Below are positions 54,315 to 60,899 of a DNA stretch of 64,000 nucleotides, piece by piece (positions within the stretch are counted from its first letter, which is position 1; the number at the start of each line of letters is the position of its first letter). The position numbers and the translations under genes were made by a program. Below the pieces are notes generated by a model, which worked only from the letters and a program-made list of their open reading frames with translations, ran no database searches and was not told where the DNA came from. Source of the stretch: Romanomermis culicivorax (taxonomy: Eukaryota; Nematoda; Enoplea; Mermithida; Mermithidae); assembly GCA_963922205.1 (NCBI GenBank), contig CAWUHX010000069.1:806001-870000 (forward strand). Direction: 5' to 3'.

Positions 54315-56110
54315 GCCAGATTTGTGAAATTGAGTGAACACTTACAAATTACATTTGTACAGTTGTTTTTGACAATAAAATTGACCTTGGTAGCATCACT
54401 GTTTCTAGGGGTGAGTTTGTCAGCACCGGCGGCTCAGTATCAATTTTGCGGTCTCTCAAGAAGCGGACATCCACTTGAGTTACCCCAGCGTGTAGAGTGT
54501 AAACCACCGCAATCTTCATGGAGCCCGCGGCGCATGAATGTTACGGTGTATGTCCCTAGCTCAGACCCGATTACAGCCACAGCGTGAAAATGCACATTGC
54601 GCTCCCGCAAAGTCTGCACCAACACTGGTTTCTTTGGCTCTAGGGGCATCACTGCAGATGTCATCACCACTCAGCACTTAGCGCCTGCGGCATGCATGCT
54701 AGCACATCGCACTAAGATGTTTGGTTCACAAAAACTTGTCGGCGTTCGCCCTGGCTTTTATAGCACAAACCAAACATTGGAAGTGATGTACGAATGGTGC
54801 TGCAGCGACGTCTGCAAGACAGTGACTAACCTCTTCATCGAGGAGGGACAAGTCGCTTCGTGGGACGGCACTACGGCCCTAAGCACCTTAGGCGATGTAG
54901 GTGGATGCAGTCCCACTGCAGGCCAGTGCACTACTCTAGACGGGGTCATTGTCTGGCCTGCACAAAACTTCACGGCGCGGTGTCATTATCACCCCAAGGG
55001 AAATTACACTGCGTCCATGACAGGGAACCACGTCATCATCGATGATCTACAGGTTGCCCTCAAGATCCCGGGAAACTCCCGCGTCTTCCAACTGTGCCCA
55101 GAACTACGTTCCACCACAGTCCGGACGGATCAGGGTCTTCTCCTTCGCATCCACGGGAGATACAATTTGACCCAAAACTTGTTCAGAGTGGCAACCAACA
55201 GCCGTCCCGATCCTGTCAATGCCAAACTGAACTATCTGGCTCAGCAGATCAAGGAGTCGGAAATTAACGGTTTCCGGTTCACGTGGCTTGAGCTTTGCTC
55301 TCACGCTCAACGCTACCTTGATCTGACTTGGCAGTTGCTTCGCTTCGACCCCACCCTGGGTGCCCGGGCATTCCTCCAGAGGAATGACCTGACGGCGGAA
55401 TTCACAGGCTATGCGCTGACAATATGGCCGTGTCAGAAGGTCAACGCCACCTACATTTACCACTCGTACCAGGTGGGGAACGTTTGCTACAAGTACTTAC
55501 CTGTACAGGTTGGCGGCACCATCTACTTCGCCACCCCCGGTGGTCCGGATCTCATTAAATCTAGCCCAATTGTGCCGTGTCATCACCACTTTACCGGGAT
55601 TTTCCGAAATCGCTCGGGCTGGTTTACTGAGTCTGGCGCGGTCCATGTGAGCCACATCCCACTGGAACTCTTCTGGAAGCAGCGTTTCAACATCACTCAC
55701 TTTGAGGCACCGGCACTCTTCCATGACCAGTTGGCGATGACCCCTTCAAACTTTGCCTTCTTTAAACAGTACGTTTACAAGACTGAGCAAATTGAAGCGG
55801 TACTCAACCGGCTGGTAAACTTTACCGCTGGTCTATCCCTGCAACCAGACGCCATTTACCAGGCCTTTGCAGGGGTAGGAACCGACATCAAGGCCTCTCT
55901 GGAAGGTGTCGGTTTGGCAGCAAACCATGTTATTACGGGTCAACAACACACCCTCGCCCAGGGCTTGCATGCTGTCCTGAGCGGGCCGGTCCAGTTGATC
56001 TTTAACATCCTGATTACCCTGACAGTGCTGATTGGTGCCGGATACCTTGCCTATCTTGGTGTATCTTATTATCTCAGCTACCGTCTGCGGAGCAAACAGG
56101 TCAGGTTTGT
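54315..56110 (+). CDS. Env-like membrane glycoprotein, N-terminal to pol in the same frame
   Basis: A signal-peptide-like hydrophobic segment (nt about 54345-54430) is followed by a Cys-rich ectodomain of about 520 residues with at least eight N-glycosylation sequons (for example NFT, NYT, NLT, NAT, NRS, NIT), a CCxxxC pair early and a CYKYLPV motif late. A possible helical stalk follows, then one strong transmembrane segment at nt about 55985-56090 and a short basic tail. This is the layout of a type I viral fusion glycoprotein. The late CYxxLPV block and the stalk just before the membrane recall chuvirus-type (mononegavirus-like) glycoproteins captured by other retrotransposons, but that is from memory and unverified. 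A TGA at 54585-54587 interrupts the N-terminal part. It is fused in frame to the protease-polymerase region. Confidence 0.8.
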
Positions 56111-59100: not shown

Positions 59101-60899
59101 CTGTTGTCCATTTCGTCAAGCACTTTTGACCATACCTCTTCCAGCACGAGGTGGTCGTTCAGACTGACCATACCGCGGTCAAAGCAGTGTTGGAGAAGCC
59201 TAACCCCTCTGCTCGGATCGCTCGGTGGGGACTCGCGCTCGCCAAATTCAAACCGACAATTCGGCCGCGAAAAGGTCAGTCTAATGGTAATGCTGATGCA
59301 TTATCACGCCTGCCGGATCCTAACTCCCTCACCGGTCAGAGTATTGATGATACTTCCCTCTACAGACCTGAGGGGCATGTTATGATGATCACCGATGGTG
59401 CGCAGCACCTGGCGAGATCAAGAACCTTGACCGATGGTGTGCAGCACCTGGCGCGTTCAAGTAATTCAGCACCGATCACTGTTGGCGCGGAGCGCCCGGT
59501 ACGATCAGAGTCTTATGCCGAGATATCGGTTGGTGCGCAGCACCCTGACCTTTTCGCTGCTTAGCTGGAGGATCCGGACTTAGCCGACATCATTCGCTCT
59601 CTTAAGCCTCTGGGCGACCAGAATGATGTGCGGGGCTACCATCTGTTGGATAACGTTCTTCAGAAATGGACAGGCGAGTCCAATAAGATCGTCATACCCC
59701 GATCCATGGTTACTACCATTATCCGGGCTCATCATGATGACATCTTAGCTGGACACTTTGGTGCTAAACGGACTGCGCGGCTCATTGCTCGCAGATACCA
59801 CTGGCCTTCCCTCAGTCGGGATGTCAAGTCCTTCTGTCAGCGGTGTGATCTTTGCCAACGGAATAAGCCCGCTCGACAGAAAACCACTGCGACCCTGAAA
59901 CCTATCACCATCACGGGACCGTTTCACCGGGTAGGTGTCGACTGTATGGGACCAATGACCACTAGCGAAGCTGGCAACCGTTTCATCGTAGTCTTTATCG
60001 ACTACTTTACGAAATGGGTCGAGGCTTTTGCTACTCCGGACATCACTGCGAACACCATCGCCCGGCTGTTTGTAACGCAAATTGTCTGCCGGCATGGGGC
60101 ACCGCAGATTCTTCAGTCAGATCGTGGCACTGATTTCACATCAAAACTGATGACTGAGATCACTGCGATCTGCGCAACGAAGAAAATCCACTCTACCGCC
60201 TATCACCCAATGACCAACGGCGAAGTGGAAAGAGCTAATCAGACGCTAGCCACATGGCTACGTATGTATGTTCATCAAGGACATACCGATTGGGATGAAC
60301 ACCTGCCATAGGCTGTGTTTGCCGTCAATATCAGCATGAATGAGTCAACAGGGTACTCGCCCTTTGAACTCATGTACGGTCGCACACCCATGCTCCCTGT
60401 TGATGCCGCGCTCTCATTCAACCCTCCGGCCCATATCATTAATGTTTCCTCATATGATATGGAGGTCAAACGTCATTTCACGAATGCGTTAACCTTAATC
60501 CAGAGTCGGATTGAGAAAGCACAGGAAGCCTATGCACGGTCGTACGACCGGAAGGCACATGATGTCTCGTACAAAGTAGGGGATCAGGTGCTCAAACTGC
60601 GCACCTCCAGCAAACGTGGACTCACTCCTAAATTGCTGCCCATCTACGATGGACCCTACCTTGTAACAAGTGTTGCATATCCCAATGTCACACTTCGTCT
60701 CGAGATGGATCAGGAAGACACTGTACATGTCAACCAGCTTCGACTTTACGTGTCCCCTGAACAACCGAGTGAAGCAGAGGATACACCTCCCACTTCACAG
60801 GCAACAGGTTCGGCACCCTTATTGTATCCCTCAATAAGCCGGGACTTTACACCGAATCTGATTGACCCACATCTTGATGCAGAGGTCCCCGACCCGTAA
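56111..60899 (+). CDS. pol: Pol: two protease domains, RT, RNase H, integrase, with five in-frame stops
   Basis: One reading frame continues from the env-like tail to TAA at 60897-60899. The order is: degenerate protease (56205-56590), Arg/Ser-rich linker (56650-56860), canonical retropepsin (57205-57540), reverse transcriptase (about 58030-58560), RNase H (about 58950-59310), a repeat linker (59390-59560) and integrase (about 59690-60770). Stops are TAA 58464-58466, TAG 58500-58502, TGA 59127-59129, TAG 59562-59564 and TAG 60309-60311. None is accompanied by a frameshift. The domain order RT-RH-IN places it in Ty3/Gypsy. Confidence 0.93.
56205..56590 (+). other. Degenerate retropepsin-like domain (PR1)
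   Basis: The segment has the two halves of an aspartic protease fold: a hydrophobic strand leading to LDRGC where the catalytic Asp-Thr/Ser-Gly should be (nt about 56256-56270), and a C-terminal LILGLDFL block (nt about 56517-56540). The Thr of DTG is replaced by Arg, which should disturb the active-site fireman's grip. It is probably inactive, perhaps structural or able to pair with the second domain. Confidence 0.7.
56650..56860 (+). other. Arg/Ser-rich linker
   Basis: About 45 residues dominated by Ser and Arg, with RS dipeptides (SGSRSRSRASS, RGSTRGSRASSRRASR). Such segments bind RNA or direct proteins to the nucleus in other families. It separates the two protease domains. Confidence 0.8.
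57205..57540 (+). other. Canonical retropepsin (PR2)
   Basis: ALVDTGAVFSLLD (nt about 57247-57285) carries the catalytic Asp-Thr-Gly, and LVLGTNFL (nt about 57460-57483) matches the C-terminal motif. It would be the active protease that processes the polyprotein. Confidence 0.9.
58030..58560 (+). other. Reverse transcriptase domain, two stops near the active site
   Basis: Motifs in order: VRRFPYRSSPKEKDLI, IIRPSTLPWATNTVLVRKKN, RMCVDFRGLNEVT, YPLPQIDDIL, FTTLDQANTYWSI, EFNYLPFGLCNAP, then YLDDILVF (nt about 58515-58538) with the catalytic Asp pair. The TAA at 58464 and TAG at 58500 lie between the last two motifs. Confidence 0.95.
58950..59310 (+). other. RNase H domain, one stop
   Basis: ILQTDASISGIGAVLSQ starts the domain, followed by PVAYASRGLTAAEKNYSITE, and after the TGA at 59127, VVQTDHTAVKAVLEK and NGNADALSRLP. 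These are typical Ty3/Gypsy RNase H blocks. Confidence 0.93.
59390..59560 (+). repeat. Four in-frame hairpin-encoding repeats in the RNase H-integrase linker
   Basis: 13-base hairpins with 5-bp stems and 3-base loops occur at 59397 (GGTGC-GCA-GCACC), 59436 (GGTGT-GCA-GCACC, one G-T-type or mismatched pair), 59484 (GGCGC-GGA-GCGCC) and 59532 (GGTGC-GCA-GCACC). Spacings of 39, 48 and 48 keep the frame and give imperfect repeats of G(A/V)QHLARS type. Confidence 0.8.
59690..60770 (+). other. Integrase domain, one stop
   Basis: An HHCC zinc-binding N-terminus (HDDILAGHF then CQRCDLC) is followed by a catalytic core with Asp in GVDCMGP, Asp in SDRGTDF and Glu in NGEVERANQ, and a C-terminal GPY/F-type module (LLPIYDGPYLV). 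A TAG at 60309-60311 falls between the core and the C-terminal part. Integrase joins the cDNA to host DNA; a 4-base duplication is seen here. Confidence 0.95.

What the first reader, a model, noticed from the sequence alone, without database searches (positions are those of the whole stretch)
54315..60899. Env-like glycoprotein fused in frame upstream of protease-RT-integrase
In known env-bearing LTR elements (errantiviruses, Cer/Tas-type nematode elements, vertebrate retroviruses) env is a separate ORF downstream of pol. Here a signal-peptide-like segment, a glycosylated Cys-rich ectodomain and a transmembrane helix precede pol, and one reading frame continues from the glycoprotein tail through protease, RT, RNase H and integrase. 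This implies either a membrane-anchored polyprotein cut by its own protease or a regulated fusion product. I know of no described element with this order, but I cannot search.
Basis: partly seen in the sequence, partly recalled or inferred. Interest (0 to 1): 0.9.

Follow-up and report, generated by a model that had tools for sequence, protein, structure and literature searches.

The report
Retroelement with envelope before polymerase
A mosquito-parasitic worm carries many copies of a virus-like jumping gene whose cell-fusion-type coat protein sits in the middle of one giant reading frame, between the shell protein and the copying enzymes, instead of at the end as in the relatives described so far.

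Summary
The order is real and conserved. The window holds a 16.2-kb Ty3/Gypsy element (46644-62876) of the mermithid nematode Romanomermis culicivorax. A Monjiviricetes (chuvirus-type) fusion glycoprotein (GP), with a hydrophobic signal-like segment before it and a transmembrane helix after it, lies between gag and protease-RT-RNase H-integrase, in their frame. The window copy is defective: nine premature stops. Elsewhere in the genome 56 of 86 scored places keep one open frame of at least 3,000 aa spanning gag-GP-pol, and families whose GPs are only 35-55% identical keep frames above 2,400 aa. GP is under strong purifying selection (dN/dS 0.065); in one family group changes are mostly synonymous in this frame from gag to integrase. 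So it is no rearrangement. Most likely mechanism: one Gag-Env-Pol polyprotein with an internal signal, cut by signal peptidase and its own protease. A single Env-containing polyprotein is known (Atlas virus, Gag-Pol-Env); ten open-access literature searches listed no Gag-Env-Pol element.

The parts
46644..48102 (+). 5' LTR, 1459 bp, TG...CA ends
   Evidence: 1456 of 1459 identical to the 3' LTR; 4-bp target duplication AGAT at 46640-46643 and 62877-62880
48103..48114 (+). primer-binding-site-like TGGCGAGGCTGG directly after the 5' LTR
   Evidence: the tRNA was not identified
48115..51758 (+). long leader without a recognised gene; degenerate TGACGTC-containing repeats at about 49240-49990
51759..53500 (+). 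Gag (CA and NC/proline-rich part; end approximate) in the polyprotein frame; broken by premature stops in this copy
   Evidence: weak Ty3_capsid match; same start Met in 12 of 20 sampled copies with the frame open to GP; dN/dS 0.311 in this frame for -2790..-1500 relative to the GP word
53510..54301 (+). ORF X, overlapping, -1 frame relative to the polyprotein (263 codons stop to stop; Met at 53588 gives 237 aa)
   Evidence: found in 27 of 27 anchored loci = 24 distinct copies, window included; selected in its own frame (dN/dS 0.155 N half); homologue P0003 in R. culicivorax; no Pfam match
54346..54437 (+). hydrophobic internal signal-like segment in the polyprotein frame (ends approximate)
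   Evidence: hydropathy peak 2.08; equivalent peaks in families f3, f4, f5, f10
54438..55994 (+). glycoprotein ectodomain, Monjiviricetes_fusion (PF24664 match 55215-55646); one premature stop in this copy
   Evidence: E 5e-13; P0001 39% over 394 aa; dN/dS 0.065
55995..56087 (+). transmembrane helix and start of cytoplasmic tail
   Evidence: hydropathy peak 2.14 at 55995
56187..56567 (+). first retropepsin-like domain (PR1, bounds approximate); active-site motif altered in this copy, canonical in the 23 other distinct copies examined
   Evidence: hhalign to PR2 profile prob 42.5%, E 2.6e-4, reversed control 0.56%; Pfam does not call it
57195..57530 (+). second retropepsin domain (PR2, gag-asp_proteas; bounds approximate)
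   Evidence: E 7.5e-8; motif at 57249; motif found in 7 of 8 loci long enough to test, the eighth not found
58191..59249 (+). reverse transcriptase and RNase H (YLDDILVF at 58518), same frame, interrupted by stops in this copy
   Evidence: RVT_1, RT_RNaseH_2, RT_RNaseH
59565..60899 (+). integrase (H2C2 zinc finger and rve core) to the terminal stop
   Evidence: Integrase_H2C2 E 1.6e-22, rve E 3.6e-9
61418..62876 (+). 3' LTR

Best explanation
It belongs to a clade of Ty3/Gypsy (Metaviridae-type) retroelements of R. culicivorax that captured a chuvirus-type fusion glycoprotein between gag and pol and kept it in the gag-pol reading frame while the clade diversified. Proposed working: the genomic RNA is translated as one Gag-GP-PR-RT-RH-IN polyprotein. 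When the internal hydrophobic segment emerges, the ribosome is taken to the ER; the glycoprotein domain enters the lumen, signal peptidase cuts it from Gag, the TM helix stops transfer, and protease-RT-integrase stay cytosolic as its tail. The element's protease then frees Pol. Gag (left with a hydrophobic C-terminal tail), GP and Pol are thus made at the same membrane in fixed 1:1:1 ratio, topologically like the capsid-signal-glycoprotein start of a flavivirus or alphavirus polyprotein (comparison recalled). Shown: order, single frame, recurrence across families, selection in frame. Inferred: translation as one chain, topology, cleavages, fusogenic function.
For: Single frame of at least 3,000 aa at 56 of 86 scored places, whose ends match the gag start and integrase end. 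Frames of 2,400-4,000 aa around GP at 8 of 68 (count in 84), 32 of 88, 11 of 96 and 40 of 103 scored places (counts; the sets overlap, and includes many window-family places); GP 38-100% identical to the queries. In the f6/f8/f9/f10 group substitutions are mostly synonymous in the GP frame from gag through GP to integrase, apart from the 300 nt just before the signal, and the f10 copy has no stop in that frame. GP dN/dS 0.065 over 171 pairs of 19 copies. GP and RT-RH rank the families alike (f5-f10 closest, f4 most distant); for IN f4 is again among the most distant. This fits one capture and joint descent. Signal-like and TM hydrophobic peaks in the window and in the four other families examined. 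No in-frame Met within about 35 residues before the hydrophobic core in f5, f8 and f9. No GTRAGT donor from -3000 to about +5000 of the GP match in f9 and f10, and in f5 only one, beyond the coding frame.
Against: No RNA or protein data. In the window's own family the roughly 700 nt between gag and GP are selected in the -1 frame (ORF X), not in the polyprotein frame (N half dN/dS 1.59 there), so the join is not constrained as protein; its openness is only mildly unexpected (0.9-2.9% of codon shuffles in 4 copies). The pre-GP segment shows no frame-specific selection (dN/dS 0.889). Donor-like GTGAGT lies in the signal segment of 27 of 27 anchored loci (24 distinct, near-identical copies) and AG|GTGAGT in the LTR; f3 and f4 also hold GTRAGT sites upstream of or in GP, and acceptor-like sites occur in all five families scanned. 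f6 and f10 have a Met inside the hydrophobic segment. In the f10 group the other three copies have broken upstream frames. The join of gag to GP was not shown for f3 and f4. The PR1 model was worthless (pLDDT 35).
Confidence: 0.6

Rival explanations
1. The order is real but GP is not made as part of a Gag-Env-Pol chain: a spliced or trans-spliced mRNA expresses GP(-Pol), or GP is a retained in-frame intron removed to give Gag-Pol.
For: LTR splice donor at 47580 (the only full match in a strict scan of the window element) and acceptor-like TTTTCAG at 51103 and 53176; GTGAGT inside the signal segment and TTTGCAGG before the TM in 27 of 27 loci, 24 distinct copies; GTRAGT sites in f3 and f4; the annotated R. 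culicivorax protein P0003 joins X to the GP C-terminal region; Cer1 uses a spliced mRNA for its third protein (PMC10309623 passages); errantiviruses likewise for env (recalled).
Against: f9 and f10 hold no GTRAGT donor over about 8 kb and f5 only one beyond the coding frame, though weaker donors were not scanned; the 24 copies are near-identical, so conservation of sites is weak evidence; the open frame through GP is kept across families, which a removable intron would not need.
Confidence: 0.22
2. In the window's family gag is read into X (by -1 frameshift or splicing) and GP-Pol is a second, separately started ORF; the gag-GP open frame is a by-product. Other families have true Gag-GP-Pol.
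For: X frame is the selected one between gag and GP; 2 of 19 anchored sampled copies carry the same 86-nt deletion, which fuses gag to X in an 810-aa frame.
Against: X can start at its own Met, the first ATG after an acceptor-like TCTTCAG in 17 of 17 sampled copies that keep the site; the polyprotein frame is free of stops across X in 14 of 19 sampled copies although shuffled X codons give about 2.3-2.8 stops on average.
Confidence: 0.13
3. Rearranged copy or assembly artefact.
For: The window copy is broken by nine stops.
Against: 86 scored places with the GP, 72 in a frame of at least 2,101 aa, many other families, intact LTRs with target duplication.
Confidence: 0.01
4. GP is a decaying passenger with no function.
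For: Many copies are broken.
Against: GP dN/dS 0.065, lower than Gag at 0.311.
Confidence: 0.04

Closest known systems
Atlas virus and related nematode Belpaoviridae (PMC9094657, passages read)
   Same: Nematode LTR element, one ORF that contains Gag, Pol and a viral-origin Env (2828 residues, no stop codon or intron).
   Different: Order Gag-Pol-Env with a phlebovirus-type class II Env at the C-terminus; BEL/Pao pol. Here Gag-Env-Pol, Monjiviricetes-type GP, Ty3/Gypsy-type pol.
Anakin (BEL/Pao of mosquitoes with chuvirus glycoprotein; PMC7642597, passages)
   Same: LTR element with captured chuvirus-type glycoprotein.
   Different: BEL/Pao, not Gypsy; the passages seen describe no glycoprotein between gag and pol. 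The 2023 follow-up (PMC10084718, passages) found no clear evidence of capture by Gypsy.
Cer1 of C. elegans (PMC10309623, passages)
   Same: Nematode Ty3/Gypsy element, no stop between gag and pol, third protein from spliced RNA.
Errantiviruses / gypsy (recalled) and bdelloid TelKA elements (PMC5408684, passages)
   Same: Retroelements with a captured viral fusion glycoprotein.
   Different: Env is a separate ORF3 downstream of pol (TelKA: paramyxovirus-type F protein).
Flavivirus/alphavirus structural polyprotein (recalled; analogy only)
   Same: Capsid followed by internal signal, glycoprotein, TM in one chain.
   Different: Unrelated replication enzymes and ancestry.

Membership tests
Metaviridae (Ty3/Gypsy) | PR-RT-RH-IN order with Gypsy-type RT/RNase H and H2C2 integrase | tested here: met
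   Pfam; best solved-structure match of the f10 RT is Ty3 (E 1.8e-94). No RT tree was built.
Metaviridae (Ty3/Gypsy) | LTRs TG..CA with 4-6 bp target duplication | tested here: met
   window AGAT and the C16 copy CTGT; the third copy examined (C69:1073066) showed no duplication, its LTRs are 97.4% identical
Metaviridae (Ty3/Gypsy) | CCHC nucleocapsid and retrotransposon capsid | tested here: met
   clear in f5 and f10 gag; in the window only a weak capsid match below cut-off and no CCHC match
Errantivirus-type env element | env as separate ORF downstream of pol | tested here: not met
   GP upstream of PR-RT-IN in the same frame
Atlas-type belpaovirus | single Env-containing polyprotein frame | tested here: met
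Atlas-type belpaovirus | BEL/Pao pol and Env at the C-terminus | tested here: not met
Monjiviricetes/chuvirus fusion glycoprotein (PF24664) | match over the curated cut-off | tested here: met
   48.3 bits vs 27; 68 of 68 listed genome hits over cut-off, 0 of 14 control genomes
Monjiviricetes/chuvirus fusion glycoprotein (PF24664) | class III fusion fold and fusion activity | not testable with these tools
   prediction of GP was not accepted; relatives P0001 and P0002 match gB and BDV_G only below cut-off
Retropepsin (PR1) | D[ST]G motif and second hydrophobic-Gly motif | tested here: met
   first motif in 26 of 27 loci (23 of 24 distinct copies, the window being the exception), second in 27 of 27
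Retropepsin (PR1) | profile or fold similarity to retropepsins | tested here: inconclusive
   hhalign 42.5% vs reversed 0.56%; not called by Pfam; structure model pLDDT 35

The most novel reading that the evidence does not exclude
An entire radiating clade of animal Ty3/Gypsy elements makes all its main proteins, including a chuvirus-type fusogen in the middle, as one membrane-threaded Gag-Env-Pol polyprotein whose Pol starts life as the cytoplasmic tail of Env; one branch has added a selected overlapping gene X and a second tandem protease at the junctions.
Probability: 0.55. Interest if true: 0.88.

Novelty: new variant of a known kind. Interest (0 to 1): 0.78.

Why it matters
Env after pol, usually from its own spliced mRNA, is the textbook order of env-bearing retroelements (recalled). 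A stable Gag-Env-Pol order would show that this order is not required, would abolish separate control of Gag, Env and Pol amounts, and would give Pol a membrane anchor at synthesis. It also gives a Ty3/Gypsy case of chuvirus-type glycoprotein capture in a mosquito-parasitic worm, a plausible route for such genes between insects, worms and viruses (inference). R. culicivorax RNA has already been sequenced (PMC10879605, passages), so the transcript question can be tested directly.

Tried and rejected
Rearrangement or assembly artefact: rejected. Troyka as the parent group: read abstract, introduction and start of methods only; its CG..CG ends and 3-bp duplications do not fit the TG..CA ends and 4-bp duplications here. 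Gene-order exceptions in zebrafish ERVs and plant Sireviruses: the passages seen gave no env between gag and pol; the PMC2577118 passage was irrelevant. Large public proteins holding GP plus protease: none of 7,694 candidates at E <= 0.001 (only proteins of about 710-2,260 aa are candidates, so full-length polyproteins would be missed). GP relatives in IMG/VR: 100 pattern matches, none confirmed. SL1 RNA as a nematode marker: no match, and none in the controls either, uninformative. Solved structures for GP and PR1: no convincing match. PR1 model: pLDDT 35, dropped. Retained-intron reading: no GTRAGT donor in f9 and f10, but such sites in f3, f4 and the window family, so kept as a rival.

Rows dropped before counts: dN/dS pairs differing by more than 8% (106 of 171 for the NC/proline-rich segment) or 6% (113 of 171 for Gag, 88 of 171 for X); L022 lacked the GP anchor word and is absent; one 24,354-aa frame left out of the count. 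L003/L009, L005/L010 and L008/L011 are the same copies, so 27 anchored loci are 24 distinct copies; the selection analyses of the window family used only L009-L028. Pairs among related copies are not independent. Loci L029-L033 were fetched but not analysed.
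Full report
WHAT IS THERE. The window's last 17 kb are mostly one LTR element. The LTRs (46644-48102, 61418-62876) are 1,459 bp, 1456 of 1459 identical, begin TG and end CA, and are flanked by the 4-bp duplication AGAT. A TGG-starting primer-site-like stretch follows the 5' LTR. After a 3.6-kb leader, Gag starts at 51759 and, in the same frame, come a hydrophobic segment (peak at 54363), a glycoprotein with 14 Cys and 8 sequons in 54588-55990, a TM helix (peak at 55995), a protease-like domain PR1, a Ser/Arg-rich linker, a second protease PR2, RT, RNase H and integrase ending at 60899. 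The glycoprotein is over the curated cut-off of Pfam PF24664, Monjiviricetes_fusion (48.3 vs 27 bits). This copy is defective: nine premature stops lie in that frame.

HOST. The genome holding the window has 359,112,060 bases in 595 contigs. The published R. culicivorax v2 assembly has 359.1 Mb and 595 scaffolds (PMC10879605, Table 1 seen in a passage), and an R. culicivorax UniRef protein (P0003) matches one place at 98% over residues 1-151. Taxonomy: Nematoda, Enoplea, Mermithida.

COPIES. A search with the window GP scored 86 places (of 3,961 first-look candidates, so a lower bound), 97-100% identical in GP; 56 of 86 lie in one open frame of at least 3,000 aa and 72 of 86 in one of at least 2,101 aa. 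I fetched 20 of the 86, spread down the list, as 5.6-kb pieces. In 12 of 20 the frame is open from the same Gag start Met to GP (one of these, L020, has a stop further on); in 7 it is broken upstream, and in 1 (L022) the GP anchor word was not found. The left and right ends of the 3,092/3,100-aa frames coincide with the Gag start and the integrase end.

OTHER FAMILIES. A PF24664 search gave 68 scored places, all over the cut-off, and 0 of 14 control genomes. Ten were fetched as upstream and downstream pieces. In 8 of 10 the GP frame runs past the position of the RT catalytic motif (YxDD itself seen in 7 of these 8) and in 6 of 10 to a stop at 1,554-1,655 codons; Pfam confirmed integrase there in f3, f5 and f10, the three tested. 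f1 and f2 are frameshifted inside GP. A Gag start and GP share one open frame in f2, f5 and f10; the other seven show no open frame from a Gag start to GP in the fetched piece, and for f3 and f4 the join was not shown. Pfam found gag and CCHC fingers upstream in f5 and f10 and protease downstream of GP in f3, f5 and f10, weakly in f4. Queries with the GP of f3, f4 and f5 found frames of 2,400-4,000 aa at 32 of 88, 11 of 96 and 40 of 103 scored places (overlapping sets, counts in 114). Between the window, f3, f4, f5 and f10, GP is 35-55%, RT-RH 49-67% and IN 31-59% identical. GP and RT-RH agree on the closest pair (f5-f10) and the outlier (f4); for IN, where the compared pieces differ in length, f5-f10 has the highest score but not the highest identity, and f4 is again distant. 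This fits one capture followed by joint descent.

SELECTION. Among 19 sampled copies GP has dN/dS 0.065 and TM-PR1 0.097 (171 pairs each); Gag CA/NC 0.311 (58 pairs, 113 dropped). In the f6/f8/f9/f10 group the synonymous fraction in the GP frame is 0.43-0.89 in every full 300-nt bin from the gag start to the integrase end except the bin just before the signal (0.23), against 0.00-0.37 in the other two frames; the f10 reference has no stop in that frame, while the other three copies carry a few stops or breaks upstream. So the single frame is kept by selection on both sides of GP in that group.

ORF X. In the window family 53510-54301 is open in the -1 frame (stop to stop 255 or 263 codons in most copies). 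It is found in 27 of 27 anchored loci (24 distinct copies), 25 loci as a separate ORF and 2 fused to gag by an 86-nt deletion. Here the selected frame is X (N half dN/dS 0.155; polyprotein frame 1.587; 83 pairs, 88 dropped; C half 0.417 against 0.803), and the site-by-site map shows the switch at about -1050 and the return to the GP frame at 0. The polyprotein frame is nonetheless free of stops across X in 14 of 19 sampled copies, which codon shuffling of four copies reproduces in 0.9-2.9% of trials. X has no Pfam match and in the upstream pieces of the ten other loci only one weak hit appeared, in f4 (E 0.026). I take X for an accessory protein, perhaps from a spliced RNA, since its Met is the first ATG after an acceptor-like TCTTCAG in 17 of 17 sampled copies that keep the site. 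This is inference. The window family is therefore the least clean example of the polyprotein, and f5 and f10 the best.

PROTEASES. PR1 carries a D[ST]G motif in 26 of 27 loci (23 of 24 distinct copies) and a second motif in 27 of 27; it aligns to the PR2 profile with 42.5% probability, E 2.6e-4, against 0.56% for a reversed control, but Pfam does not call it and the single-sequence model failed. A tandem retropepsin pair is likely, not proven.

MECHANISM. See Best explanation. For: signal-like and TM peaks in the five families examined, no in-frame Met within about 35 residues before the hydrophobic core in f5, f8, f9, no GTRAGT donor in f9 and f10 over about 8 kb. Against or open: a Met inside the segment in f6 and f10; donor-like sites in the window family, f3 and f4; acceptor-like sites in all five families scanned; no RNA or protein data.

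WHAT IS KNOWN. One polyprotein that includes Env is known from hookworm Atlas virus, order Gag-Pol-Env, BEL/Pao (passages). Chuvirus-type glycoprotein in an LTR element is known as Anakin, BEL/Pao (passages); a 2023 survey reports two nematode glycoprotein EVEs and no clear Gypsy capture (passages). Cer1 has no stop between gag and pol, and its extra ORF does not resemble Env (passages). Drosophila MDG1-group elements use a short fusogen-like protein instead of Env (passages). Ten searches of the open-access library listed no paper that I could recognise as describing a Gag-Env-Pol element; most subscription papers and Repbase were not searched. Hence: new variant of a known kind.

Noticed in passing
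window 46644-62876: The LTR pair differs at 3 of 1459 sites, but the copy has 38 substitutions private among 20 aligned sequences in about 5.1 kb of coding sequence, and nine stops. The damage looks older than the last insertion: a defective genome moved in trans, or LTR conversion.
   Followed up: partly
window 53510-54301: Overlapping ORF X in the -1 frame, under selection in its own frame, no Pfam match; besides one 98% place, relatives of its homologue P0003 at about 40-63% identity elsewhere in the genome.
   Followed up: yes
L037, L043, L047 (families f2, f5, f7): The protease motif reads D-C-G instead of D-[ST]-G in all three copies.
   Followed up: no
window 49240-49990: Degenerate repeats around TGACGTC in the long leader between LTR and gag.
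   Followed up: no
window about 60933-60967 and 61383-61419: A near-repeated block ending CTTTTTCGAAGGACCGCCGTG occurs twice, the second time running into the 3' LTR.
   Followed up: no
G000:C180:404-17640 and G000:C283:176991-195658: Three GP hits each at regular spacing (8,365 nt; about 8.6 kb), as if elements stood in tandem sharing LTRs.
   Followed up: no
G000:C371:149103-150347: A GP hit reported inside an open frame of 24,354 aa, not explained.
   Followed up: no
P0003 / L058: A public R. culicivorax gene model joins X to the GP C-terminal region; the acceptor corresponds to TTTGCAG at window 55873.
   Followed up: partly
window 23540-24493: ORF with a sub-threshold adenylyl cyclase N-terminal match (E 6.5e-5), probably a host gene.
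   Followed up: no
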